IMG/VR virus record: IMGVR_UViG_3300030329_005348 | Span: 1 to 20,546 of that record | Reading direction: 5' to 3' (one strand) | Source of the DNA: a virus | DNA length: 20,546 nt | Shown here: positions 9,191-19,880 of the stretch, piece after piece | How positions within the stretch are numbered: position 1 is the first letter of the stretch | Layout of the letters: each line of letters starts with the position of its first letter | The notes under the pieces: model-generated | The model's database searches: none | Told to the model about the DNA's origin: nothing | What the model saw: only the letters and a program-made list of their open reading frames with translations | Program-made: the position numbers and the translations under genes

Positions 9191-9712
9191 CTAAGCTACT
9201 TCTTGAAAAACTGCCTGTATATTGTAATCGTCTTGAAAATTGAACGTGCTTGACCAACTGGCACATACGAATTTCTTTATAACTGAATAAGGTGCAGGAG
9301 CTTTATAGTAAAAAGATTTGTAGCCTTCCTTCGCGGATAAAAAATGCAGTATAGCTGTCGACTCTGCTTCTGATCGGTTAGTGAAAGATAACTGAAGCGA
9401 TAATAAGTTGCTGTGCGTTCCTTCACTAATCCTTTGCACATATCCGTCCCCGAGTTCTATAGTTTTAACCTTAGGCTCATGCTGTACGTTTCCGCCATAC
9501 GAAGCCGCCCAAAAGAAGTAGGGATTCTCAACTTGACTTAGTCCGCTTTGTATTTTTATTGTTCCCGCCCAGTGTACGGAATCAATACTAGGAGTGTTAC
9601 CGGACGATGCGTCTGTTTTCGAATAATAAAAGTAACCTCCATGGCTAACTATGTCGTTAGTATTATACGTCTTTGAAGCCTTATAGGGCGCTATATTATA
9701 GATTGATGCCAT
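9191..9712 (-). CDS. M: Minor tail protein (lambda gpM-like) with N-terminal CBM5/12-like module
   Basis: The protein has 173 aa and is the first gene of the tail-tip operon. Residues 63-173 follow the gpM family pattern: ELGDGYVQRISEGTH (86-100), a conserved FL..KEGYKSFYY segment (124-136), FVCASW (148-153) and a terminal IQAVFQEV. The first 50 residues are not part of normal gpM. They contain YKASKTYNTNDIVSH, YFYYSKT, SGNTP and HW, the pattern of a small chitin/carbohydrate-binding module of the CBM5/12 type, similar to the one inside the next gene product. An AAGGA site lies close to the ATG. A shared-promoter palindrome lies just upstream. Confidence 0.82.
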   Translation of the reverse strand: MASIYNIAPYKASKTYNTNDIVSHGGYFYYSKTDASSGNTPSIDSVHWAGTIKIQSGLSQVENPYFFWAASYGGNVQHEPKVKTIELGDGYVQRISEGTHSNLLSLQLSFTNRSEAESTAILHFLSAKEGYKSFYYKAPAPYSVIKKFVCASWSSTFNFQDDYNIQAVFQEVA

Positions 9713-9720
9713 ATTATTCC

Positions 9721-9775
9721 TTGTACCTTACCTCTTATTTACACTATAATAGTGTAAAATAATTATGTAATTCAA
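9721..9775. promoter_or_regulatory. Overlapping divergent promoters centred on a perfect 21-bp palindrome
   Basis: Bases 9738-9758 are TTTACACTAT, a central A, then the exact inverted complement ATAGTGTAAA. TATAAT (9745-9750) sits in the centre. On the + strand TTGTAC (9721-9726) is 18 bp upstream of it. On the - strand TATTAT (9751-9746) has TTGAAT (9775-9770) 18 bp upstream. RNA polymerase could therefore bind the same -10 in either direction, serving the gpM operon to the left and the tail-tube-like gene to the right. The palindrome may instead be an operator or a site for a phage late sigma factor. Both -35 boxes are weak, so the promoter reading is inference and the palindrome is direct observation. 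Confidence 0.5.
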
Positions 9776-9781
9776 CTAAAG

Positions 9782-10864
9782 ATGGCTATTTTTTCTCATA
9801 AAGATCTTAGAATTATTGTAGGCGGCAACGAAATATGCTGCGATAATATATCTATCAATACAAATCTTCCTGCAGCACCAACTTTTACCATCGAAAGCAA
9901 GGCGGGGAGTATTCCCAAGAATAATAATCATCGCGAGGGAGCGGTCAAGTTCTCGTACTACATAACTGGTGCAGATCCGATTTATAACCACCTAACTCAG
10001 ACTCCAGAAAGCTTTATCTCTGTTGAGGCAGCTGGTTTGAAAATCATTTCTGGTTATTTAACTGATTACGCAATAAACGTCAATCAGTTTGGTTACACAA
10101 AGGGTGAGGCGTCACTTAAATATTATGAGGAGGTTGGCGGTACATTTACTACCCAAAGCTCTGCCGTTATTCCATCTCAGGCGGAAATTATCAAAACTAC
10201 TAATGCCGAAATATCTGGAAGCCATTCTTTTTCTGTTGATGATCTGGAAACTATTTCTTACCGATATACTTGCGAAATGACCCCTGTTTTCGATGTAGAA
10301 GGTCTAGCTTTAAAAGAAGTAAGGAGAGGTAAAAAGAAGGTAGATTCCCAAGCTCTTTCAATCGGCGCAGATATATCCCTGCCTCATTCGGGATTAAGAG
10401 AAAGTTTTAAGATTAATTTAAAAGATAAAAATGATGCAATCGTTCAGTCTTTTACTATTGATGGACTTTTATACAAGAAGAGCACGGTCTTTACTACGTC
10501 TGATATTGTTAAGAGTAATTATGAAATTGGTAGCGCGAGACTAGGCGCGTTGAATAATGAGCGCCCAACTATTACCTCCTTCTCTCCCGCTCAGGGAGCG
10601 CCAGATACTGTAGCAACAAGCGCTAGCCACTCTTCAGTTACCGTTAATGGTAATAACTTCCTAAACGTTGATCAAGTTATGATAGGAGAATTTCCCTGCA
10701 AGATAACTTCTTCCTCCGAGTCTTCAGTTGTATTTGAAGTTTCTAATGATATACTTTCTGGATACTCTGCTCCGATAAGGTTAATTACTGAAACTAGTGA
10801 CCCAGTGTCCTCCGCAACCGTTTTTACGGTCACGGGAGGACTAACTGACATGCACGGATTTTAA
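9782..10864 (+). CDS. Tail-tube-like structural protein with C-terminal IPT/TIG domain
   Basis: The protein has 360 aa. The N-terminal part (about 1-255) has patterns seen in phage tail tube proteins: INTNLPAAPTF near 25-35, then ISGYLTDYAINVNQFGYTKGEASLKYYEEVGG at about 89-120. A second similar beta-rich stretch at 190-250 suggests a duplicated tube fold. Residues 261-350 begin PTITSFSPAQG, contain VTVNGNNF and VMIGEFPC, and end ATVFTV, which is a typical IPT/TIG immunoglobulin-like domain. lambda's tube protein gpV also ends in an Ig-like domain. It lies on the opposite strand from the tail-tip genes and has no clear Shine-Dalgarno site. Its stop interlocks with the convergent gene (shared TTAA). 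The tube assignment is an inference; another hub or decoration protein is possible. Confidence 0.55.
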   Translation: MAIFSHKDLRIIVGGNEICCDNISINTNLPAAPTFTIESKAGSIPKNNNHREGAVKFSYYITGADPIYNHLTQTPESFISVEAAGLKIISGYLTDYAINVNQFGYTKGEASLKYYEEVGGTFTTQSSAVIPSQAEIIKTTNAEISGSHSFSVDDLETISYRYTCEMTPVFDVEGLALKEVRRGKKKVDSQALSIGADISLPHSGLRESFKINLKDKNDAIVQSFTIDGLLYKKSTVFTTSDIVKSNYEIGSARLGALNNERPTITSFSPAQGAPDTVATSASHSSVTVNGNNFLNVDQVMIGEFPCKITSSSESSVVFEVSNDILSGYSAPIRLITETSDPVSSATVFTVTGGLTDMHGF

Positions 10865-11571
10865 CTTTTGACCTTGGCCTTTTTAAGTCTTTCAATTAAT
10901 TCAAAAGCTTTTAGTTTGGGTATGTCGTTTAACCCCTGCATGCTCTCTGCCTCAGAGAATCCTTCGGCAATAAGTTTAGATTTAACTTTATCAAAGGATA
11001 CCCCTTTCTCGGTCATTACTGACTGAAGCATACTCCTCGGGTCCATAGAGTTGTCGGTGGTGTATTCGCTGGTGTTGGTAGAGGAAACGCTCGGCGCGTC
11101 TGATCCTCCCAACTCTTCTTTACCTACGATATTTATCTTTAAGAAATTACGCACGCAACGGACAAAGGCTCTATTTTCAGCGATTGGTCCAAGAAAATTT
11201 CTAGCGAAACTATTTGTATTATGTGGTGAAGCGTCGCCGATGGCCGAAAAGACTACGGGCTCCCCTTCCGTTTCGTAATTAGGTTTCCAGCTTATTGTGC
11301 AAGTCGCCACAACATAATCCGAGCTAGGGGATACTACGTCATACGTAACATCTGTATACCCGCGAATTTGTGCGAGTTCTTTGATGCCTCCTAATAGGAT
11401 AATTAACTGGTAATCTTTAAGCTTTGTTACGTCCGTTTCTTTTGTGCGGTCCTTGTTTGGGACAAGGTGTTCGGGCTTCACCATCTTTCTCCAGTCGATA
11501 AGGCCATCTTCCGTAAAGGTGTATTCTACGTCTTTGATTAAGCCATCGCTATTTCTTTCGATTTTCTTCAT
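10861..11571 (-). CDS. Possible single-strand annealing / recombination protein
   Basis: The protein has 236 aa. The core motif is FSAIGDASPHN (108-118) followed by AENRAFVRCVRNFLKINIVGKEEL (131-154). The order 'GDAS..., AE.RA..RA.R' is typical of phage Rad52/Sak/Erf-like annealing proteins and related families, which pair single strands during phage recombination. A Ser/Thr-rich linker (about 155-178) leads to a helical, basic C-terminal domain (180-234) that may bind DNA or a partner. The gene has its own promoter with the -10 only 6 nt from the ATG, so it can be made separately from the operon upstream of it. The family call comes from motif memory only; a conserved protein of unknown function is the alternative. 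Confidence 0.4.
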   Translation of the reverse strand: MKKIERNSDGLIKDVEYTFTEDGLIDWRKMVKPEHLVPNKDRTKETDVTKLKDYQLIILLGGIKELAQIRGYTDVTYDVVSPSSDYVVATCTISWKPNYETEGEPVVFSAIGDASPHNTNSFARNFLGPIAENRAFVRCVRNFLKINIVGKEELGGSDAPSVSSTNTSEYTTDNSMDPRSMLQSVMTEKGVSFDKVKSKLIAEGFSEAESMQGLNDIPKLKAFELIERLKKAKVKS

Positions 11572-11577
11572 AAAAGG

Positions 11578-11606
11578 ATTATACTAAATAACCAAAAATA
11601 GATCAA
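11578..11606 (-). promoter_or_regulatory. Sigma70-type promoter, leaderless, for the annealing-like gene
   Basis: On the - strand TTGATC (11606-11601), a 17-bp spacer and a perfect TATAAT (11583-11578) are followed by 6 nt and the ATG at 11571. Transcription starting at the usual distance would begin at or within a base or two of the start codon. The -35 box lies inside the 3' end of the GT9-like gene. Confidence 0.7.
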
Positions 11607-12799
11607 GCTATTTTTTCGAGTATTAAAAATGAATCTAAGTCTTGCCAAAAATCCGGATGGTCAATTACCCTTCTTGGTTCAAGACATTTTGTATCAAGAA
11701 CTGGCTCATTACCCTCTAGATAAACGTTACTTGGATAAAGATCAGCCCTTAAGACTGTCAAGCATGAGCTTTTATAGTAAATGTTGCTTAAGTCCTTGTT
11801 GTTTAGAAGTTTCTGGAGCTTCTTTTTTTCTCCCACTTCCTTCTTTATGATTGGGGCTATGTCTAAATATTTTAATTTTATTTGATTTAGCTCTTTGTCT
11901 TTCATTTTACTCATCACAAAGAACTTTACTCCCGCTTGCTTCAACTGCTTAAAGTAATTAACGTCCGTATCTTTTTCTATAAAGAAAACGTACTCAGCAA
12001 TTCTGGACTTATATTTTTGTAGTAATTGAATGTTAATTGGTTTGTTTGTAACGATGGAGCACTTACAGATATTTAATTGCTGTTCTAAGCTTCTTTCGTC
12101 GAAGTATAGGTCCATGCGCACGATCATAGAATCTACTCCCATCTGTTGGTAATTAGTAATAAAATGAACGGGGACGAGTTCTATTTTGTTTATGTGGTAA
12201 TCTTTACCCATGTATAAAGTTTTGAAGGGGTAATCGTAATCAATCTGTAGCAATTTGCATACACTCCTTGCTATATCTTCAGGTTTAATTTTATTAATAG
12301 TTTTCGGGTTTTCTTCTACGGAGTAACTAGGCTTCTCGTGATTCTCTCTCGTTGGCTGTAATATGATTGTATCTTTATCCTCGCTCCAGTAAGGGCCGGA
12401 CTGTTCTGGTAGCATATTAGAATATAACCCTACGATTTTTTTATTGTGCCCTGACGCGAAATGAATGCCAAAGCTATCTATTCCCAAGTGCAGTATGGAA
12501 TTTTTAATTAAATATGCCGCCTGTGAAAACGAAGTCTGCCCCATCATGTGATGGCATCCATCAATAGGCTGTTCATTTTTCCCCCCGATTTGGACTATTT
12601 TAATTCCTTGGTCTTCTAGCGCGGGCTTAAGAATCTCTAACACTTCTTTCCAGTAGTCGTAATACCTACTTGGGAATTTTCCGTAAGGCTGGAGTGTGAT
12701 ATAATCATTCTGAAAGGGTAGGGGCACAAACCTTTCGTATACATAGGGGGTTCCTATTTTTAGTCCGGTATTCAAAGAAAATGATTCTACTAGGTGCAT
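11603..12799 (-). CDS. Glycosyltransferase family 9-like (heptosyltransferase-like) protein with long C-terminal extension
   Basis: The protein has 398 aa. Residues about 30-150 read like the C-terminal nucleotide-sugar domain of GT9 enzymes: YITLQPYGKFPSRYY (33-47), IKIVQIGG (66-73), then SILHLGIDSFGIHFASGHNKK (101-121) and IVGLYSN (122-128). These correspond to the family's 'G..D.G..H.A.A...P.V.L.G' pattern. The N-terminal acceptor domain of cellular GT9 enzymes is missing. The C-terminal half (from about 190) is unrecognised and carries FFIEKDTDVNYFKQLKQAG, like a short Rossmann-type repeat. It starts 1 nt after the membrane protein gene. It may add sugar to a virion or host glycan; the substrate cannot be inferred. 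Confidence 0.6.
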   Translation of the reverse strand: MHLVESFSLNTGLKIGTPYVYERFVPLPFQNDYITLQPYGKFPSRYYDYWKEVLEILKPALEDQGIKIVQIGGKNEQPIDGCHHMMGQTSFSQAAYLIKNSILHLGIDSFGIHFASGHNKKIVGLYSNMLPEQSGPYWSEDKDTIILQPTRENHEKPSYSVEENPKTINKIKPEDIARSVCKLLQIDYDYPFKTLYMGKDYHINKIELVPVHFITNYQQMGVDSMIVRMDLYFDERSLEQQLNICKCSIVTNKPINIQLLQKYKSRIAEYVFFIEKDTDVNYFKQLKQAGVKFFVMSKMKDKELNQIKLKYLDIAPIIKKEVGEKKKLQKLLNNKDLSNIYYKSSCLTVLRADLYPSNVYLEGNEPVLDTKCLEPRRVIDHPDFWQDLDSFLILEKIA

Positions 12800-12800
12800 A

Positions 12801-13163
12801 TTATTGAGTTATTTTTTTATATACGTAAAGGGACGCGACGTAAGCTATTGGAATGAATAGGTAGTTTTTGGTTAATGCGCATAAGATTATTGTAAACCAA
12901 AATCCCAAACAGTAAGGACAGCTAATAAGTCTTGTAAAGAATGAGCTATGATTAATCAACAAGTAATATACATAGCTTATGGATGGATCTGCGTCCTTCT
13001 TCTCTTCGTAATCGTCTATGAGGAAAAATTTAGAGCCACCAATTATTTTAGCGTATTCCACAAATGCATCCGTTTCGAACCACACAATAAGCGTAGTCAC
13101 TACTGCGGAAACTAAAAAAATAAAATCAAATATCTGTGATATATTTAAGATCTCTACCGTCAT
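12801..13163 (-). CDS. Small membrane protein with CPYCLGFW motif
   Basis: The reading frame could begin at 13199, but the ATG at 13163 is preferred because GAGGA lies 9 nt before it; this gives 120 aa and a 38-nt overlap with the dCMP deaminase gene. Hydrophobic segments lie at about 11-29, 86-99 and 101-115. Between the first two is ISCPYCLGFWF (80-90). CPYCLGFW is typical of the DUF1360-type family of small membrane proteins found in phages and bacteria, whose function is unknown. The paired cysteines could bind metal or form a disulphide. The acidic loop DDYEEKKDADP (50-60) is probably outside the membrane. Confidence 0.65.
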   Translation of the reverse strand: MTVEILNISQIFDFIFLVSAVVTTLIVWFETDAFVEYAKIIGGSKFFLIDDYEEKKDADPSISYVYYLLINHSSFFTRLISCPYCLGFWFTIILCALTKNYLFIPIAYVASLYVYKKITQ

Positions 13164-13587
13164 CTTTGTTAATCCTCGACATCGCGTCCGTAGACGCATA
13201 TAGTTGAATACCGTAAGTTGCGCTAGAAAATAGTGCTTCCTTATCTCTTGGATAAACTTCGTTAAATACCACTTTCTTTATCCCATAAGCAGCAATATTT
13301 TTTATACACTCGGTACAGGGGAGTAACGTCGTCGCTAGCAGGTAACACTCATTAGGTTGAATATACCTTAGAGCATTCATTTCTGCGTGAACTACCTTGC
13401 TCCTTCTCATTTCCCTGTCGCTCCAATCGATATTTATGCCGGAGGGAGCGCCGTTATACCCGAGACTGGCCACAGTATTATCTGACCTCAAGATACAAGC
13501 TCCCACTTGTCTGTAAGGGTCTTCGCTTCGCATCGAAGCGACCTTAGCTAATTCTAAGGCATACTCTGCCCAGTTAATTCTGGACAT
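13126..13587 (-). CDS. dcd: Deoxycytidylate (dCMP) deaminase
   Basis: The protein has 153 aa. The zinc-dependent cytidine/deoxycytidylate deaminase signature is complete: H67-A-E69 (VHAEMNAL) and P90-C91-T-E-C94 (PCTECIKN). GYNGAPSG (43-50) is the usual dCMP deaminase substrate-loop sequence. The enzyme converts dCMP to dUMP, feeding thymidylate synthesis; phage versions raise the dTMP pool or adjust base supply for phage DNA. It follows the AT-hook gene by 3 nt with a GAGGA site upstream, and it overlaps the membrane protein gene. Other nucleotide enzymes in the window are a dNMP kinase and NrdA, so supply of DNA precursors is a clear theme. The symbol is used loosely for dCMP deaminase; T4 calls it cd. 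Confidence 0.92.
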   Translation of the reverse strand: MSRINWAEYALELAKVASMRSEDPYRQVGACILRSDNTVASLGYNGAPSGINIDWSDREMRRSKVVHAEMNALRYIQPNECYLLATTLLPCTECIKNIAAYGIKKVVFNEVYPRDKEALFSSATYGIQLYASTDAMSRINKDDGRDLKYITDI

Positions 13588-13590
13588 TTA

Positions 13591-13881
13591 CTATTTGTTC
13601 CTCTCGTAAACGTTTAAAGGTCTACCGAACGCAGTCTTAAGCGTGTCGACTTTTAAGATGCCACCCTTTACTAGCTCTGCTCTCATTTTTTTTCTAAGAG
13701 ATGAGGCGGATAAAACGTTCGTTTCCTTTAGCGAATCAAATGTGAATCTACCGTCCGGCCACACAATACTTTGTTTTGGTCTACCTCGTTGTTTCGTGAC
13801 CTTGGGTTCTGAGATCTGGGGCTCTGCGACCGACGGGCTTTCCATCGAGCAGCTATTTAAGTTTTCTGTATATTCATTCAT
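13591..13881 (-). CDS. Small AT-hook protein, probable DNA binding
   Basis: The protein has 96 aa. The N-terminal 28 residues are polar and disordered-looking. KQRGRPKQS (30-38) is a classical AT-hook core (RGRP), which binds the minor groove of AT-rich DNA. The rest, WPDGRFTFDSLKE (41-53) then SASSLRKKMRAEL and GGILKVDTL, looks like a small helix-turn-helix or winged domain. It is the first gene of a - strand operon with its own promoter and faces the 143-aa gene across an 80-nt intergenic region with back-to-back promoters. A role in regulating these promoters is possible but is only inferred from position. Confidence 0.6.
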   Translation of the reverse strand: MNEYTENLNSCSMESPSVAEPQISEPKVTKQRGRPKQSIVWPDGRFTFDSLKETNVLSASSLRKKMRAELVKGGILKVDTLKTAFGRPLNVYERNK

Positions 13882-13892
13882 ATGTTAGTAAG

Positions 13893-13921
13893 AAGATATA
13901 ACATATCTGAGAATAAGTCAA
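13893..13921 (-). promoter_or_regulatory. Sigma70-type promoter for the AT-hook/dCMP deaminase operon
   Basis: On the - strand TTGACT (13921-13916), 17 bp, TATCTT (13898-13893), then 11 nt to the ATG at 13881. The predicted leader is only about 4-5 nt. Its -35 is 6 bp from the -35 of the divergent promoter. Confidence 0.6.
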
Positions 13922-13927
13922 CTTTTT

Positions 13928-13956
13928 TTGCAATTTATTTTATCTTAGATTATAAT
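13928..13956 (+). promoter_or_regulatory. Sigma70-type promoter, leaderless, for the 143-aa gene
   Basis: TTGCAA (13928-13933), 17 bp, perfect TATAAT (13951-13956), then 5 nt to the ATG at 13962. No ribosome binding site fits in the predicted transcript, which should start at about the A of the ATG. Confidence 0.75.
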
Positions 13957-13961
13957 GGGTA

Positions 13962-14393
13962 ATGACTACACTTGAAGCTTCAGGTCAACTTTACACATGG
14001 TTTTCAGAAAACGATTCCTTTTCGCTTGAAAAGGATTTTATGAAAGTCATACCAATCACAGAAGAGCCAGAAAGAGACAGGGCTGCTTTCTTATGCGCTT
14101 TAAAGGATTTCGAAGAGGGAGACATGATTAAAGAAGCCGAAATCGGTGATGAAAAATATTGGATATTGAAGAGATCTTTCTTAACGTATCCTCAAAATAT
14201 TACAGTTACTCCGGAAACTGCCCTATTGATGTCCACAGTCATAAATAAATTCTGTGAAATAATTCAAAATGATAAAGATAAATGTGATCCCGCTAACGTA
14301 TCCGAAGAAGATATAAAAAATTTATTGTACATTTGTAATTACTTAACTAATGATCCGGAAAAAGGAGTTGACTTAGAACAGGAACTACTGTAA
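13962..14393 (+). CDS. Conserved-looking hypothetical protein, acidic, possible winged-helix
   Basis: The protein has 143 aa and is not assigned to a named family. Residues 1-70 (LEASGQLYTWFSEND, then DRAAFLCALKDFEEGDMIKEAEIGDEKYWILK) have the helix-helix-helix-hairpin rhythm of a winged-helix domain. TVINKFCEIIQND and the C-terminal helices are acidic. Similar 'LEAS..LY.WF' proteins are familiar from marine tailed phages, though this is recollection and was not searched. The gene has a very strong promoter with the -10 directly before the ATG, suggesting early, abundant transcription. The last codons contain the -35 and the stop codon contains the start of the -10 of the next candidate promoter, which drives the RNA region. 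Confidence 0.75.
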   Translation: MTTLEASGQLYTWFSENDSFSLEKDFMKVIPITEEPERDRAAFLCALKDFEEGDMIKEAEIGDEKYWILKRSFLTYPQNITVTPETALLMSTVINKFCEIIQNDKDKCDPANVSEEDIKNLLYICNYLTNDPEKGVDLEQELL

Positions 14394-14396
14394 CCT
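14368..14396 (+). promoter_or_regulatory. Sigma70-type promoter pointing into the gene-free region
   Basis: TTGACT (14368-14373), 17 bp, TAACCT (14391-14396) fit the pattern of the other promoters in the window. Transcription would start near 14402-14404, at the foot of the first hairpin. No ORF follows for over 400 nt. The -10 is weaker than elsewhere. Confidence 0.5.
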
Positions 14397-14400
14397 TTCC

Positions 14401-14744
14401 AAAAGGTCAAAATCCTTTTAAGCTCGCTGAGAGCAACCAGTAGAGTTTTCCTGAGATGAGATTTTATGAATCAGGACTTCAGGCAAAAGTCCATATTCAA
14501 GGGTATGCCTAGGAAAAATACGATCCTAAAAAAACTAGCAGGTAATTCCTGCTGCACTGCCCCGGCGTGTTGTGGTAGACTATTGTAATGAGTTTTTAAG
14601 CACAGTTTCTCATCCCAAAAGGGAAGATAGTCCTCGAAAGAGTTGCGTATAGTCCGCTGAATGTCCCATCAGTATTTAAAATCACTGGGTCTAAGAAAAA
14701 TGTTTAGTATAACGCAAGCCCCCTTTTACAGGGGGTATTGTGTT
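14401..14744 (+). ncRNA. Candidate structured non-coding RNA (about 345 nt)
   Basis: The 446-nt gap 14394-14839 has no usable ORF but many perfect hairpins: 14401-14419 (AAAAGG/CCTTTT), 14449-14476 (TCCTGA/TCAGGA), 14474-14492 (GGACTT/AAGTCC), 14510-14528 (TAGGA/TCCTA), 14537-14553 (AGCAGG/CCTGCT), 14613-14624 (TCCC/GGGA) and 14633-14642 (GAAA-capped). A long final stem lies at 14711-14744 (AACGCAA/TTGTGTT enclosing CCCCCT/AGGGGG). A promoter ends at 14396. GACTAT (14578-14583) pairs with ATAGTC (14627-14632), and AAAAACT (14530-14536) with AGTTTTT (14591-14597). These two interlock as P7 and P3 do in group I introns. The last stem has no U-run, so the 3' end is uncertain. No named family is established; RNase P RNA, tmRNA and tRNA do not fit. 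Confidence 0.5.
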
Positions 14745-14763
14745 CCCATGTTCTAGAAAAATG
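14509..14763 (+). repeat. Three copies of CTA(R)GAAAAAT in the RNA region
   Basis: CTAGGAAAAAT (14509-14519), CTAAGAAAAATG (14691-14702) and CTAGAAAAATG (14753-14763) are near-identical A-rich motifs. The first forms part of a TAGGA/TCCTA hairpin and the second part of a CTAA/TTAG hairpin. They may be protein-binding or processing sites, or chance in AT-rich DNA. Confidence 0.35.
14711..14744 (+). terminator. Strong hairpin at the 3' end of the RNA region, without U-tract
   Basis: The outer stem AACGCAA/TTGTGTT has 7 pairs with one G-U. The inner stem CCCCCT/AGGGGG has 6 pairs, with loop TTTAC and a small internal bulge. It is the most stable hairpin in the window. It is followed by CCCATG and not by a T-run, so it is not a standard intrinsic terminator. 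It could be the stable end of a processed RNA. Confidence 0.35.
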
Positions 14764-14805
14764 TTATTGTATAAACGGTTCGTATTCATCTCTGGGATTT
14801 AATAC

Positions 14806-14834
14806 TTGACCGCATTTCTTTTTGGGTTTACTTA
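14806..14834 (+). promoter_or_regulatory. Sigma70-type promoter, leaderless, for the GT2 gene
   Basis: TTGACC (14806-14811), 17 bp, TACTTA (14829-14834), then 5 nt to ATG 14840. It supports the ATG at 14840 over the TTG at 14822, which would lie inside the promoter. The -10 lacks the final T at this register. Confidence 0.55.
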
Positions 14835-14839
14835 TTGGT

Positions 14840-15631
14840 ATGAGATCTTTGTTAGCTATCACTACTTATAATCAAATTCACTACACGGATCTTTTATTAA
14901 AAAGATTAAAATACCATTCTGATGTCGACGTTTTAATTGTAGATGATTTTAGCACAGACAATTATCCGGCCCTAGCGAAGCATTACGGTGTTGGGATAAT
15001 TACTAAGGACAAAGGCTATGGCCCGACCCACTCGTGGAACTTGGCTTATCAAAAATTTAAATATGGAAATTACAATTTTCTTTTTATAAGTAATAATGAT
15101 GTGATTATCCCAGACGGAGCGCTTGGTAATATGGCGAGAACTTTGCAGGATAATATGGTGGTTGTACCGTTTTGTAATCCTCAGGGAATTAGTTCACTCG
15201 GAGAGCAGCAAAAGATTTCTAGGTACAAGGAGCTTAATTTAGGCGATTATGATTCTAGGCACGCGCCGGACGAGATGTTTACTTACGAAACGATACAGGA
15301 AATTCAAGATAAAATAAACAATCGTGAAGATGATCGTAAGCTGGGTAGCTTTGGGGGGCACTTTATGGGATTTAATGGAGAGATACTTGATTACGAGTTC
15401 GAGCCTGACAAGCTTTTTGATCCCAGCAGAGAGTTTACTGGTGGAGATAACGAAATATTTAGAAGACTAAGGAATCAAGATATTCGCGCAACTCTATGCA
15501 AGTCCGCTTACGTTTTTCATTTTAGGTATGGAAGTAGTGACATAACTACAGACAGGAGGATTTTACAGGTCCAAAGGGAATTGGATTTCTCAAAGACAGA
15601 TAGCGCAGTACCCTTCCCCAATCTTATATAG
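14840..15631 (+). CDS. Glycosyltransferase family 2-like protein
   Basis: The frame extends to a TTG at 14822, but ATG 14840 is chosen because the promoter -10 ends 5 nt before it; this gives 263 aa. The GT-A fold pattern is clear: LLAITTYNQ (4-12) at the start, VLIVDDFSTDN (31-41), KGYGPTHSWNLAY (58-70) and FLFISNNDVIIPDG (80-93), where NND is the DxD-type metal and nucleotide-sugar site. Further on come GGHFMGFN and FTGGDNEIFRRLR, the latter like the acceptor-loop ED motif region, and a terminal VFHFRYGSS, as in rhamnosyl/galactosyl GT2 enzymes. It ends convergently, overlapping the next gene by 8 nt. Donor and acceptor are unknown. Confidence 0.75.
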   Translation: MRSLLAITTYNQIHYTDLLLKRLKYHSDVDVLIVDDFSTDNYPALAKHYGVGIITKDKGYGPTHSWNLAYQKFKYGNYNFLFISNNDVIIPDGALGNMARTLQDNMVVVPFCNPQGISSLGEQQKISRYKELNLGDYDSRHAPDEMFTYETIQEIQDKINNREDDRKLGSFGGHFMGFNGEILDYEFEPDKLFDPSREFTGGDNEIFRRLRNQDIRATLCKSAYVFHFRYGSSDITTDRRILQVQRELDFSKTDSAVPFPNLI

Positions 15632-16442
15632 TAAAGTCTTCTTTTTTACAGATATTTTTGTCCCAAGGAACTAGTACTCCGTAACTTTGACGATCTCCGA
15701 GCCATTTTACCTTGTGACTAGTCGTACCCCACATCATCGTAGAGTTGGGTATGTTTGTTATTGTTATTTCATACCCCAGCTTTTTAACTATGTTCCAAGT
15801 GAACCACCTTTCTCCCTGTCTCTGGTGATACCTGTAACTATTTTGGTTTGGTCCGCTATGATAAGGTAATCCTGAACTTTCGTTAGCTTTTTTTAAAATT
15901 TCTCTAGTTGTTATACCTGTCCCGCCTCTAGCGTAAGGATGACTATAACCGCGAGTAATTCGTTTTATTGTAGCTACAAATCCAATATTACTTTCTTTTG
16001 ATTCCAGTATATCTATAGCGTCTTTCATTACGCCGTGATTGACGGTAATAGCGTCATCTTCACAGAAGTACCAGTATTTATAAAAATTTTGAAATAATTG
16101 AAAAGCAAAATCAAAGGCTCCAAAGGAGATCCCAAAATTATATTTATGTAAAACTATTATCCTTCCGTTTTTAGTATCTTGCCCATTTAAAGAGTTGAGG
16201 TAATCTGAGCACTCCCCTTTTACTTTGTCATTAACAGAATTAACAATTATTAAATCCATGGGAACGCCATAGTCTAATTGCTTTTCTTGCCTAATAATAT
16301 ATTTTAATCTACATAAATTATCTGCAGACTGGATAGAGCATCTTCTAGAGCCAGCCCAAAACGCTATGACCTTTACCGCCTTAGCGGGACCCAAGTGAGA
16401 TCTATATTTACATTCGTAAGCCGCGCAAGATTGTCCGCTCAT
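15624..16442 (-). CDS. GT-A-like glycosyltransferase, paralogue 1
   Basis: The frame could start with GTG at 16457, but ATG 16442 is preferred, giving 272 aa. It is a clear paralogue of the next gene upstream: both share AVKVIxFWxGxRR, LKxIxQExxLDxG, MDLIIVNS, DYLNSLNG, KNG, HxYNxGxSFG, YKYxxF and EDD (128-130 here), then NIGFV and GGTGIT. The EDD triplet, following a hydrophobic strand, is the likely DxD metal site of a GT-A fold. The family is not one I can name. This copy has a cysteine-rich N-terminus (C6, C11, C35, C44) and about 55 residues of C-terminal extension absent from paralogue 2. No Shine-Dalgarno site is seen; the upstream region resembles that of paralogue 2. Confidence 0.6.
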   Translation of the reverse strand: MSGQSCAAYECKYRSHLGPAKAVKVIAFWAGSRRCSIQSADNLCRLKYIIRQEKQLDYGVPMDLIIVNSVNDKVKGECSDYLNSLNGQDTKNGRIIVLHKYNFGISFGAFDFAFQLFQNFYKYWYFCEDDAITVNHGVMKDAIDILESKESNIGFVATIKRITRGYSHPYARGGTGITTREILKKANESSGLPYHSGPNQNSYRYHQRQGERWFTWNIVKKLGYEITITNIPNSTMMWGTTSHKVKWLGDRQSYGVLVPWDKNICKKEDFTI

Positions 16443-16460
16443 ATGTATATAATACACTAT

Positions 16461-16475
16461 TTTTTACTATTAAGT
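16461..16475 (-). repeat. Duplicated upstream element, copy 1
   Basis: The + strand reads TTTTTACTATTAAGT. The matching element before paralogue 2 (17261-17275) differs by one base, and the spacing between copies is exactly 800 bp. Both lie 31-33 nt upstream of the respective ATG, so the upstream region was duplicated together with the gene or is kept as a regulatory site. Confidence 0.6.
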
Positions 16476-16476
16476 C

Positions 16477-17244
16477 TTAGCTCCATACCATTCTTCTATT
16501 TTGATAGTTGTCTATAACACACAATTCATATCCCTTTGCGGTGATACCGTGCGTTAATTGCCTTTCCGCTTGTTGGTGTGCTTTCCAATTTTTTTGATCC
16601 CCATCATTCCAAGGTAAGTTTTCACCGTGGCAATTCAGAAGTATCCCAGTAGACGTAATTCCAGTACCCCCAACAGCATAATCACCGTGAAGAAAGTGAG
16701 TGGAGACAAATCCAATATTTTTTTGTGGATCGTTTAGTCTATCTATAGACTCTTTTAGAACGTTACTACTCGTCACGATATAATCATCTTCAGAAAACCA
16801 AAAGTATTTATATACATTTTTATACAAGTTAAATACGTAATTGAAATTTCCAAAAGACAGCCCATGATTATACCTATGCATCACTGAAATCATTCCATTC
16901 TTAGTAAGCGTTCCATTTAGGGAGTTTAGGTAATCCATAACCTCGCTATTGAGAGCTTCTGAATTTATGGAATTCACTATGATTAAATCCATACTTTCCC
17001 CATGATCCAACTCTCGCTCTTGTTTTACGATATATTTTATTTTTTTTAAACCGTCGATAACGCCTTGAGGAGCGTTACTCCTTCTCTTTCCAGTCCAAAA
17101 AGATATGACTTTAACAGCGATTGGAATTTTCGGTTCTTCTCTCAGCATCCAATCTGCGGGTTCTCCATAATGCTTAACGGGATCCAGCGGCTTCTTTTTC
17201 CACTTTATTTTTTGTCTCGTCGCTAATCGCTGAACATATCTCAT
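16477..17244 (-). CDS. GT-A-like glycosyltransferase, paralogue 2
   Basis: The protein has 255 aa and is the upstream member of the tandem pair. Its first 40 residues are basic (RQKIKWKKKPLDP) and absent from paralogue 1. The shared core starts at AVKVISFWTGKRR (43-55), continues MDLIIVNS (85-92), DYLNSLNG (104-111), HRYNHGLSFG (123-132), YFWFSEDDYIV (147-157) with the probable metal-binding EDD at 152-154, then NIGFVSTHF and GGTGIT. It ends shortly after the conserved core. The pair faces the dNMP kinase gene across 72 nt. Functional guess: sugar transfer to a phage or host surface structure. The family name is not known. Confidence 0.6.
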   Translation of the reverse strand: MRYVQRLATRQKIKWKKKPLDPVKHYGEPADWMLREEPKIPIAVKVISFWTGKRRSNAPQGVIDGLKKIKYIVKQERELDHGESMDLIIVNSINSEALNSEVMDYLNSLNGTLTKNGMISVMHRYNHGLSFGNFNYVFNLYKNVYKYFWFSEDDYIVTSSNVLKESIDRLNDPQKNIGFVSTHFLHGDYAVGGTGITSTGILLNCHGENLPWNDGDQKNWKAHQQAERQLTHGITAKGYELCVIDNYQNRRMVWS

Positions 17245-17260
17245 ATCTATTTATTACACA

Positions 17261-17275
17261 TTTTTGCTATTAAGT
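17261..17275 (-). repeat. Duplicated upstream element, copy 2
   Basis: The + strand reads TTTTTGCTATTAAGT, one base different from copy 1 at 16461-16475. It lies 31 nt upstream of the paralogue 2 ATG and does not match the TTGACA/TATAAT promoters seen before other genes. Confidence 0.6.
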
Positions 17276-17281
17276 ATTTAC

Positions 17282-17310
17282 TTGACTTTTAATTTGGAAT
17301 CAGATACCAT
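17282..17310 (+). promoter_or_regulatory. Sigma70-type promoter, leaderless, for the dNMP kinase operon
   Basis: TTGACT (17282-17287), 17 bp, TACCAT (17305-17310), then 6 nt to the ATG at 17317. An earlier ATG at 17309 stops after 7 codons. The expected transcript starts at or next to the start codon. Confidence 0.65.
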
Positions 17311-17316
17311 GAGTGG

Positions 17317-17925
17317 ATGGCCAAAACGATAATAGGTATAAGTGGAGTAGCAGGAGCGGGAAAGGATTTATTTTTTTCCTTACTGCAAAAGCACTTACCT
17401 GTTAAGAGGTTTGCGCTGGCAGATTCATTAAAGAATGACGTTAGGGGCTGGTGCGTAAACCGTTACGGCATAGACCCCACAGAATGTTCAAGAGATGACA
17501 AAGAAAAAATTAGAGATTTCCTAGTTTTTCACGGTACATTTATGCGGGCGCAAACAAAAGGGCGTTACTGGATAGACAAGCTAGACTACGAAGTTAGAAG
17601 GTACTTAAATTCTTGGGAAAACATACCCGTGATCACAGACATTAGGTACCAAGAGCACCCAGAGGATGAAGTTACTTGGATAAAAAAAGAACTCAAAGGG
17701 GTCATCGTACACGTTTCCCAGTATCAACTTAAGGACGACAAGCGAGTTTGGAAGTGTCCTGTTAACAGTGAAGAGCAGAGGCAAGATCCGATTTTAAAGA
17801 ATCATGCAGATTTTTCCGTGGAATGGGAAAAAATAAAATGTGACAATCCGCTAGAAAGTGAGTACCTTAATAAAGAGGTGGAAAAATTTGCCACTTGGTA
17901 CCATGAAAAAACGGATAATAAGTAA
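17317..17925 (+). CDS. Deoxynucleoside monophosphate kinase (T4 gp1-like)
   Basis: The protein has 202 aa. The N-terminus TIIGISGVAGAGKDLFF (4-20) holds a P-loop of the GxxGxGKD type with the aspartate usual in phage dNMP kinases. KRFALADSLKND follows, as in the T4 gp1/dephospho-CoA-kinase-like group, and VITDIRYQEHPEDE is the typical acidic strand with the basic 'DIRY..E' motif. It phosphorylates dNMPs to dNDPs for DNA synthesis. It leads a + strand operon; its last 23 nt overlap the sigma-like gene. Together with dCMP deaminase and NrdA it forms the precursor-supply set. Confidence 0.85.
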   Translation: MAKTIIGISGVAGAGKDLFFSLLQKHLPVKRFALADSLKNDVRGWCVNRYGIDPTECSRDDKEKIRDFLVFHGTFMRAQTKGRYWIDKLDYEVRRYLNSWENIPVITDIRYQEHPEDEVTWIKKELKGVIVHVSQYQLKDDKRVWKCPVNSEEQRQDPILKNHADFSVEWEKIKCDNPLESEYLNKEVEKFATWYHEKTDNK

Positions 17926-18502
17926 TGAAGAAGATTTAAATTTAATTAAATTAATAAAAAATAAGAACTGTAGTGTTAGTTTTGTCAGCCTTACCGATAA
18001 GCACTCCAAGCTTTTCTATTCCATTTGCAACAAGTTTAAGTCCAAGCTAAACATAGAAGAAGTTCACAAAGATAGAGATTTCGTTTTTTATAAAGCTCTA
18101 GTATCCTTTAAAGACGACCGAAACGCTAAGTTCTCCACTTGGCTCGGCAACTATACCAGATTTCACTGCTTAAACTACATTAAAAACAATAGTAAATATG
18201 TTTACTCAGAAGAAGATACGATAAATCACTTCTTCAACACTAAGTCCATGGAAAACTACGAAGACAATAGTGAGATGAAAAACGACGTAGACCACGCATT
18301 TAACATACTTAGCAAACTCAACGACAAAAGAATATTTAAAATATTTAAATTAAGATATTTGAATAAGGGAGAAAGATTAACTTGGAAGCAGATAGCTGAA
18401 AAGTTTAGCCTTACGCCGCAGACAATCATCAATCTCCACACTAAAGGCAGAAGAATCCTAAAGAAGAAAATGAAAAAAAATATGAAAATAAATTTGACAT
18501 AA
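17903..18502 (+). CDS. Small sigma-70-family-like factor, possible late sigma
   Basis: The frame is open from GTG 17858, but ATG 17903 (199 aa) gives a more natural N-terminus; neither start has a clear ribosome site. Residues 28-97 look like sigma region 2: LFYSICNKF, then AKFSTWLGNYTRFHCLNYIKNN (75-96), which mirrors the 'F.TW....A.N...D..R' helix of region 2. Residues 138-190 look like region 4: RIFKIFKLRYL then WKQIAEKFSLTPQTIINLHTKGRRIL (161-186), a helix-turn-helix. Size and layout match ECF and phage late sigma factors such as T4 gp55. The many lysines at the C-terminus fit DNA binding. It may switch RNA polymerase to the tail genes; no promoter recognised by it is established here. 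Confidence 0.7.
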   Translation: MKKRIISNEEDLNLIKLIKNKNCSVSFVSLTDKHSKLFYSICNKFKSKLNIEEVHKDRDFVFYKALVSFKDDRNAKFSTWLGNYTRFHCLNYIKNNSKYVYSEEDTINHFFNTKSMENYEDNSEMKNDVDHAFNILSKLNDKRIFKIFKLRYLNKGERLTWKQIAEKFSLTPQTIINLHTKGRRILKKKMKKNMKINLT

Positions 18503-18522
18503 GATAGGATACTTGGTATAGT
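18494..18522 (+). promoter_or_regulatory. Strong sigma70-type promoter, leaderless
   Basis: Perfect TTGACA (18494-18499), 17 bp, TATAGT (18517-18522), then 6 nt to the ATG at 18529. It lies at and just after the 3' end of the sigma-like gene and is the best consensus promoter in the window. It serves the 85-aa gene and the two or more genes behind it. Confidence 0.8.
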
Positions 18523-18528
18523 TTTGTT

Positions 18529-18786
18529 ATGAGTGATACATCGAATAAGAATGATTGGTCAGATCGCGAGATCGGAGCTCTTTGGAAGAGAGACAACGGC
18601 AGCCAGAAATATCTGACTGGTAAATTAAAGGACAAAGATGGCAACGAACAGCAAGTTGTTATCTTCTCTAACAAGCATAAGAATAAAGACACCCAGCCAG
18701 ATTTCAGGGTGTATAAATCGGAGCCAAGAAATCAAGAGACTGCGGCAGCGGGAGGTGCAGCTGCAGAGCAGGAAGATCTTCTCTAA
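18529..18786 (+). CDS. Small hypothetical protein, 'IGALWKR' type
   Basis: The protein has 85 aa. DREIGALWKRDNGSQKYLTGKL is followed by QVVIFSNKHKNKDTQPDFRVYKSE; the pattern 'IGALWK....KYL.GK....V.VF.NK......PDYR.Y.SE' is recurrent in small phage and bacterial proteins, some labelled DUF736-like. The short beta-rich form would suit an OB-like or single-domain nucleic-acid-binding protein. The Ala/Gly-rich tail and acidic end (EQEDLL) resemble the acidic C-terminal tip of single-strand DNA binding proteins. It has the best promoter in the window, so it is probably made early and in quantity. Function is not known. Confidence 0.7.
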   Translation: MSDTSNKNDWSDREIGALWKRDNGSQKYLTGKLKDKDGNEQQVVIFSNKHKNKDTQPDFRVYKSEPRNQETAAAGGAAAEQEDLL

Positions 18787-19880
18787 TGAAATTAACTTTT
18801 AACTGCCCCGTTAACTCTGTTTCCTTCGGTCAAGTCTCAGTAGCCTTACTAAAAGAGGCCTACGAAAGAGGGTGCGGGGTAACTCTCTTACCGATTGGTG
18901 AGAAACTTGACCTGTCATCTCAGGATAACAGCGATGAAGCCTTTCAAAAATGGCTGACCGGGGCAGTTAAATATTTTCAACGAGATCATGATCGAAACAG
19001 TCCCGCGTTAAAACTGTGGCATATTAATTCCTCACTAGGCTGGCTTTCAGATAAGCAAATTCTTTTTACTTTTTATGAACTGGATGATCCGACAGACACA
19101 GAAGTCAGTATACTAAAACAACAGCCTCTAACCCTAGTCTCCTCTAGATATACGCAAGAAGTGCTAGAGTCTAAGGGGGTAAATAACGTAAAGTATTGTG
19201 CCCTAGGTTTTGATAGCCGCAACTTCAAAAGAATAGATAAAGAGTATTTCTCTGACGAAAGAATAGTGTTTAATTTATGCGGTAAATATGAGTACAGGAA
19301 AAGGCACGAAAAAATCCTGAAAGCGTGGGCTAAAAAATTTGGTAACAATAGAAAGTATTTTCTACAGTGCGCGTTATATAATCCCTTCTTGGACGGTCAG
19401 GCCAATAACGAACTGATCGCAAGAGCATTAGGTCACAAGAAGTTTTTCAACATGAACTTCTTCCCGCATATGAAAACTAATGCTGAATATAATGACTTCC
19501 TAAATTCGGGTGATATAGTTATAGGAATGTCTGGCGCTGAAGGATGGGGGTTACCTGAGTTTCAAAGTGTTGCGCTCGGAAAGCATGCGGTAATGCTAAA
19601 CGCTCACGCTTATAAAGGGTGGGCCAATAAGGATAATGCCGTAATGGTTGACCCGTCGGGAAAAATTGATGCATACGATGAGATGTTTTTCAAGAAGGGG
19701 CAGGAGTTCAATCAGGGCCAAATATATGATTGGGATGAGGACGATTTTATTAGCGCTTGCGAAGAAGCAATTAAAAGAGCGGAAGATAATCGAGTTAACG
19801 AAGCGGGATTACTAATTCCAGAGAACTTCTCTTATTCATCGACTTTTGATACAATTTGGAAAGAGTTAGAGACCCTTTAG
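18786..19880 (+). CDS. Glycosyltransferase family 4-like (GT-B) protein
   Basis: The protein has 364 aa. The start overlaps the previous stop (TAATG) with AGGAAG about 11 nt upstream. The C-terminal half is a GT-B domain: VFNLCGKYEYRKRHEKILKAWAKKF (strand, loop and helix of the 'G....KG...L..A' type), FFPHMKTNAEYNDFLNSGDIVIGMSGAEGWGLPEFQSVALGKHAVM with the GAEGWGLPE motif at 250-258 that matches the E-x7-E sugar-nucleotide site of GT4, then NAVMVDPSG. The N-terminal half has VSSRYTQEVLESKGVNNVKYCALGFDSRNF, the classic link region of GT4. Substrate unknown. It is the fifth glycosyltransferase of the window. Confidence 0.8.
   Translation: MKLTFNCPVNSVSFGQVSVALLKEAYERGCGVTLLPIGEKLDLSSQDNSDEAFQKWLTGAVKYFQRDHDRNSPALKLWHINSSLGWLSDKQILFTFYELDDPTDTEVSILKQQPLTLVSSRYTQEVLESKGVNNVKYCALGFDSRNFKRIDKEYFSDERIVFNLCGKYEYRKRHEKILKAWAKKFGNNRKYFLQCALYNPFLDGQANNELIARALGHKKFFNMNFFPHMKTNAEYNDFLNSGDIVIGMSGAEGWGLPEFQSVALGKHAVMLNAHAYKGWANKDNAVMVDPSGKIDAYDEMFFKKGQEFNQGQIYDWDEDDFISACEEAIKRAEDNRVNEAGLLIPENFSYSSTFDTIWKELETL

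What the first reader, a model, noticed from the sequence alone, without database searches (positions are those of the whole stretch)
11571..18531. A set of promoters placed to give leaderless mRNAs
Five genes (11571 on -, and 13962, 14840, 17317, 18529 on +) are preceded by a -35-like box, a spacer of exactly 17 bp and a -10-like box ending 5-6 nt before the ATG: TTGATC/TATAAT, TTGCAA/TATAAT, TTGACC/TACTTA, TTGACT/TACCAT, TTGACA/TATAGT. Since transcription normally starts about 7 nt after the -10, the AUG would be at or next to the 5' end. The tail-tip operon genes, by contrast, mostly have Shine-Dalgarno sites. Leaderless cI mRNA in lambda is a known precedent; a whole set of such genes in one phage region is unusual.
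Basis: partly seen in the sequence, partly recalled or inferred. Interest (0 to 1): 0.8.

Follow-up and report, generated by a model that had tools for sequence, protein, structure and literature searches.

The report
Phage promoters abutting start codons (leaderless)
An uncultured group of large phages places its bacterial-type promoters so close to its genes that the messenger RNAs should begin at, or within about three bases of, the start codon, so many genes, including replication genes, are probably translated without a ribosome-binding leader.

Summary
TTGAC-N17-TAnnnT sites ending 5-9 nt before an ATG recur at fixed spacing in relatives of these genes, down to 42% protein identity. Across the phage group 96 of 181 distinct sites have an ORF-starting ATG 4-10 nt after the -10 box (mode exactly 6, which puts the A of ATG at +1). 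The effect is largely confined to a 17-bp spacer. It covers 104 proteins in 43 families, with ATG 99 times against GTG 8 and TTG 5. In 120 other viral loci ATGs instead peak 21-40 nt downstream. Nine hold-out contigs chosen by an unrelated feature agree (8 of 13). The fifth site (14840, TACTTA) is not supported. These phages also encode a sigma factor. Leaderless or near-leaderless mRNA is the best explanation, but no RNA ends are mapped and the host is unknown. Leaderless genes are known in bacteria and single phage genes; a lineage-wide phage set looks like a new variant.

The parts
11578..11606 (-). Class I promoter TTGATC-N17-TATAAT; 6-nt gap to the ATG at 11571
   Evidence: TTGAC-N17-TAnnnT and a 5-7 nt gap conserved in about two dozen relatives; 23 distinct proteins in this orthogroup
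10861..11571 (-). Gene of unknown function, 236 aa, start predicted leaderless
   Evidence: relatives; no Pfam or PHROG match
13928..13956 (+). Class I promoter TTGCAA-N17-TATAAT; 5-nt gap to the ATG at 13962
   Evidence: TATAAT and a 5-7 nt gap kept in relatives, -35 varies (TTGCAA, TCGACA)
13962..14393 (+). Gene of unknown function, 143 aa, start predicted leaderless
14806..14834 (+). Claimed promoter TTGACC-N17-TACTTA before the glycosyltransferase gene at 14840: not supported
   Evidence: scores 7 of 12; in its only recovered relative sequence the box is TTATTT
17282..17310 (+). Class I promoter TTGACT-N17-TACCAT; 6-nt gap to the ATG at 17317
   Evidence: relatives keep TTGAC-17 with gaps of 6, 8 or 9
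17317..17925 (+). Deoxynucleoside monophosphate kinase-like gene (phrog_139), start predicted leaderless
17903..18502 (+). Phage sigma factor of the sigma-70 family (regions 2 and 4)
   Evidence: found in 8 of 10 related records
18494..18522 (+). Class I promoter TTGACA-N17-TATAGT, overlapping the end of the sigma gene; 6-nt gap to the ATG at 18529
   Evidence: conserved in most relatives with gaps of 6 or 9
18529..18786 (+). DUF736-like gene, 85 aa, start predicted leaderless
13893..13921 (-).
   Evidence: highest matrix score in the window; relatives
14368..14396 (+). Class I promoter TTGACT-N17-TAACCT with no ATG nearby; precedes a conserved noncoding RNA
   Evidence: TTGAC kept in all 17 loci that carry the RNA's 5' motif
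17254..17259 (-). Class II element GTGTAA (GTGTAATAAATAGATATG), 9-nt gap to the ATG at 17244
9738..9744 (-). Class II element GTGTAAA before the tail gene at 9712, with a 25-nt gap that holds AAGGA
9752..9758 (+). Class II element GTGTAAA before the divergent gene at 9782, 23-nt gap; forms a palindrome with the one at 9738-9744

Best explanation
These are real sigma-70-type promoters whose transcription start falls on, or within about three nucleotides of, the A of the start codon, so the genes are expressed from leaderless or nearly leaderless mRNAs. This is a general trait of an uncultured lineage of large siphovirus-like phages, used for genes that include replication and nucleotide genes. 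Translation would begin by ribosomes recognising the 5'-terminal AUG instead of a Shine-Dalgarno site. A second promoter type (GTGTAA(A/T)WWA, no -35), probably read through the phage's own sigma factor, is used both leaderless and, for tail genes, with a short leader carrying a Shine-Dalgarno site. Shown: box sequences, spacing, conservation, ATG exclusivity, lack of Shine-Dalgarno, the sigma gene. Inferred: the start site itself, leaderless translation, which sigma reads which class, and early/late timing.
For: Conservation of TTGAC-N17-TAnnnT and gap in relatives to 42% identity. In G001, a matrix with no ATG information, trained on G002 plus the window, gives 28 hits at 14 bits or more against 0 in a Markov control, 18 with an ORF ATG at 4-10; in the reverse direction 13 of 25 (2 control hits); G003 with its own matrix 12 of 15 (2 control hits). 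Pooled lineage: 96 of 181 sites at 4-10, mode 6, against at most 14 for any other spacer length; 120 other viral loci peak at 21-40, with 21 ORF-ATG hits at 4-10 from 243 sites; the T4 stretch and lambda have only ATGs at 37-40. At offsets 5-9 ATG occurs 99 times, GTG 8, TTG 5; with a 9-nt gap the seventh nucleotide is A in 14 of 18, a start about 3 nt upstream of ATG. 104 proteins, 43 orthogroups. Shine-Dalgarno core before class I genes 1 of 21 (G001) and 0 of 15 (G002), while AAGGA/AGGAG is enriched before other genes. Hold-out contigs 8 of 13, spacer 17 only. Sigma.
Against: No RNA evidence. The start position is taken from the usual -10 to +1 distance of bacterial sigma-70. The host is unknown, so its ability to translate leaderless mRNA is untested. 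Some sites have 8-10 nt gaps (leaders of about 2-4 nt), and about a third to a half of matrix hits in G001/G002 have no ATG at 4-10. Matrices were trained on sites that had an ATG at 4-10, though the matrix itself holds no ATG columns. Counts pool orthologues, and gene starts come from a simple ORF caller. Class I covers only about 8-10% of genes of 80 aa or more (15 of 181 in G001, 13 of 138 in G002).
Confidence: 0.82

Rival explanations
1. The sites are promoters, but the genes are translated mainly from longer transcripts that start upstream (tandem promoters or read-through); the ATG-proximal promoter adds little.
For: Gene 11571 lies downstream of 12799-11603 on the same strand, so read-through is possible there. 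Matrix hits without a nearby ATG exist.
Against: Divergent pairs (13881/13962, 17244/17317) leave only 72-80 bp between starts, and a long-leader promoter would have to lie inside the neighbouring gene. The genes lack a Shine-Dalgarno, so longer transcripts would have no normal ribosome site. The fixed gap and ATG-only start would be unexplained under this view.
Confidence: 0.1
2. Chance resemblance in AT-rich DNA combined with choosing the nearest ATG.
For: 14840 looks like this; the window alone has only a handful of sites.
Against: 17-bp spacer requirement, Markov controls, other viral loci, conservation and hold-out contigs.
Confidence: 0.02
3. The class I sites are read not by the host's main sigma factor but by the phage-encoded sigma (17903-18502), so they are phage-specific middle or late promoters. 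(This bears on which sigma is used, and is compatible with leaderless mRNA.)
For: The sigma gene is present in 8 of 10 related records. The spacer carries an extra motif (around CGGAAA) that differs between subgroups, as if it co-evolved with a factor.
Against: TTGACA/TATAAT with a 17-bp spacer is the textbook primary-sigma consensus; the GTGTAA(A/T)WWA class without a -35 is the more natural phage-sigma target.
Confidence: 0.15

Closest known systems
TA-led (leaderless) genes of bacteria, Zheng et al. 2011 (PMC3160421); -10 motif adjacent to ORFs in Deinococcus-Thermus (PMC12340547)
   Same: A -10 box about 10-12 nt before the start codon, no Shine-Dalgarno, leaderless mRNA inferred or shown.
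   Different: Here it is in phages, with a full TTGAC -35, a 17-bp spacer and a spacer motif; in Deinococcus the -10 alone suffices (PMC12340547). No expression test here.
Lambda cI mRNA (leaderless initiation first found in lambda, cited in PMC3160421)
   Same: Promoter start at the AUG of a phage gene.
   Different: A single repressor gene there, at least 43 gene families here.
Thermus phage P23-45 middle/late transcription (Berdygulova et al. 2011, not held in the library; described in PMC7403470)
   Same: A phage that switches promoter classes on host RNA polymerase; leaderless phage mRNAs are reported there as far as I recall (from memory, not checked).
   Different: Those promoters are extended -10 without a -35; here class I has a strong -35.
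T4 late promoters (TATAAATA, gp55 sigma; reviewed in PMC2988020, consensus quoted from memory)
   Same: Class II GTGTAA(A/T)WWA resembles TATAAATA, lacks a -35, and the phage encodes a sigma factor.
   Different: The sigma here carries regions 2 and 4 by profile match; class II often sits directly before the ATG; no link to a sliding clamp was tested.

Membership tests
Leaderless (TA-led) genes | -10 box at a fixed distance that puts +1 at the start codon | tested here: met
   mode 6 nt, range mostly 6-9
Leaderless (TA-led) genes | AUG start codon almost exclusively | tested here: met
   ATG 99, GTG 8, TTG 5 at offsets 5-9
Leaderless (TA-led) genes | no Shine-Dalgarno upstream | tested here: met
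   core in 1 of 21 (G001) and 0 of 15 (G002) genes; 5 of 93 gaps
Leaderless (TA-led) genes | mapped 5' end at or within a few nt of the AUG | not testable with these tools
   needs dRNA-seq or 5'-RACE
Sigma-70 -35/-10 promoters | TTGACA-N17-TATAAT type boxes | tested here: met
T4-type late promoters (class II) | TATAAATA-like -10 without a -35, phage sigma | tested here: inconclusive
   GTGTAA(A/T)WWA without a -35 at fixed distances, and a sigma gene present; no biochemical link
Sigma-70 family (gene 17903-18502) | regions 2 and 4 | tested here: met
   all 50 PDB profile hits are sigma factors; Pfam Sigma70_r2 and r4, below the gathering score for the window's copy; Foldseek top 50 are sigma factors or RNA polymerase initiation complexes

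The most novel reading that the evidence does not exclude
A phage lineage has committed many of its genes to leaderless initiation in both its sigma-70-type and its own sigma-type promoters, so that these genes keep being translated when canonical 30S initiation is limited or altered during infection.
Probability: 0.15. Interest if true: 0.8.

Novelty: new variant of a known kind. Interest (0 to 1): 0.55.

Why it matters
Leaderless translation in phages is usually illustrated with single genes such as lambda cI. A whole lineage with two promoter classes placed at the start codon gives a testable system for why a virus would do without ribosome-binding leaders. It also affects start-codon annotation of such genomes and, through the spacing rule, allows promoters and starts to be called together in uncultured phages.

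Tried and rejected
Named relatives: megablast with the window and tblastn with the 236-aa and sigma proteins found none in 50,697 phage records; the J tail protein is only about 30% identical to many phages. Host: genome-contig hits are MAG contigs from Flavobacteriales, Cytophagaceae, Verrucomicrobiales, Halobacteriovorax, Lokiarchaeota and one unassigned bin, too scattered to name a host; the IMG number of one record gave no paper. A guess at an alphaproteobacterial host from CTTGAC was not pursued: the -35 flank alone is weak, and the one-piece tmRNA in G001 speaks against it if it came from the host. Rfam explanation of the gap 14394-14839: nothing at gathering score, only weak hits. Class II as strictly leaderless: rejected, because a large set sits 17-29 nt upstream.

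Full report
The window is a 20,546-base virus fragment with lambda-like tail-tip genes on the minus strand and, further right, glycosyltransferases, a dCMP deaminase, a dNMP kinase-like gene and a sigma factor. No named phage is close at the DNA level, and the 236-aa and sigma proteins have no match in named phages. Relatives occur in uncultured viral contigs up to 178 kb; four long records were read almost whole (G001, G002, G003, G005) and one shorter one (G007).

The five promoter-like arrangements are present as described. The fifth, 14840, reaches 7.

Relatives decide the matter. Upstream of the orthologues of 11571, sequences from about two dozen distinct relatives down to 42% protein identity keep TTGAC, a 17-bp spacer and a TAnnnT box 5-7 nt before the ATG, while the rest of the upstream sequence diverges. 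18529 and 17317 behave the same way, with gaps of 6, 8 or 9 nt. 13962 keeps TATAAT and the gap, with a variable -35. For 14840 there is one relative sequence, where the box reads TTATTT.

Genome-wide, a weight matrix that contains no ATG information, trained on one phage and applied to another, finds promoters that mostly end just before an ORF: 18 of 28 in G001 (no control hits), 13 of 25 in G002 (two control hits), 12 of 15 in G003 with its own matrix (two control hits). Pooled over the lineage, 96 of 181 distinct TTGAC-N17-TAnnnT sites have an ORF ATG 4-10 nt downstream, with the mode at 6; other spacer lengths give at most 14. In 120 other viral loci, which were chosen because they carry one such arrangement, the remaining sites peak at 21-40 nt, the normal leader length; the T4 stretch and lambda show 37-40. 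Nine contigs picked only because they carry a conserved RNA motif give 8 of 13. The set covers 104 distinct proteins in 43 orthogroups, among them DNA-polymerase-related, clamp-loader and UV-endonuclease-like genes.

Three features point to leaderless use rather than to promoters that merely lie close. The start codon is ATG 99 times against GTG 8 and TTG 5; in Sinorhizobium meliloti all 171 mapped leaderless starts are AUG (PMC3616915). A Shine-Dalgarno core is nearly absent before these genes (1 of 21 and 0 of 15) but enriched before others. And with a 6-nt gap the A of ATG sits where sigma-70 normally starts; with a 9-nt gap an A occupies the seventh nucleotide in 14 of 18 cases, suggesting leaders of about 3 nt.

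A second motif appeared in the unbiased k-mer search: GTGTAA. GTGTAA(A/T)WWA without a -35 sits 7-11 nt before 36 distinct gene starts with almost no Shine-Dalgarno (1 of 36), and 17-29 nt before 48 others, half with a Shine-Dalgarno. In the window it precedes 17244(-) closely, and the divergent genes 9712/9782 with leaders. It resembles the T4 late box TATAAATA. The lineage encodes a sigma factor with regions 2 and 4, found in 8 of 10 related records. That it reads class II is inference.

The class I spacer also carries a motif, around CGGAAA in G001/G002 and A-rich in G003. I cannot say whether it serves the host polymerase or a phage factor.

Limits: there are no RNA data, the host is unknown, gene calls are simple, orthologues are pooled, and class I accounts for only about 8-10% of genes of 80 aa or more. 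Leaderless expression itself is established (PMC3160421, PMC12340547); one phage study remarks that phage transcripts are often leaderless (PMC5312081). What appears new is a lineage-wide set in two promoter classes; the literature search was limited to the held open-access papers.

Noticed in passing
window 14403-14750 (+): A roughly 350-nt noncoding stretch between its own class I promoter (14368-14396) and a terminator-like hairpin (about 14713-14742) is better conserved than the neighbouring proteins (88% DNA identity to G001, 84% to G002). It shows strong covariation (30 of 75 pairs with compensatory change, 0 of 500 shuffles), has no Rfam match at gathering score, and its 5' motif occurs in 17 viral contigs. 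A candidate new structured phage RNA.
   Followed up: partly
L054:10910-11327 (relative G001): A phage-encoded one-piece tmRNA (Rfam RF00023, 125.7 bits), tag EADEILAKFGYVEEEELQLAA.
   Followed up: partly
window 9713-9781: Conserved palindrome TTTACACTATAATAGTGTAAA between the divergent genes 9712(-) and 9782(+), kept in near relatives; it doubles the GTGTAAA element on both strands.
   Followed up: partly
window 11603-19880: Several glycosyltransferase genes (11603-12799, 14840-15631, 18786-19880) lie in the region around the dCMP deaminase and dNMP kinase genes.
   Followed up: no
L057 and L065 (relatives G001, G002): Several class I genes begin ATGATG (two Met codons) right after the promoter, and A follows ATG in most sites with 7-9 nt gaps.
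   Followed up: no
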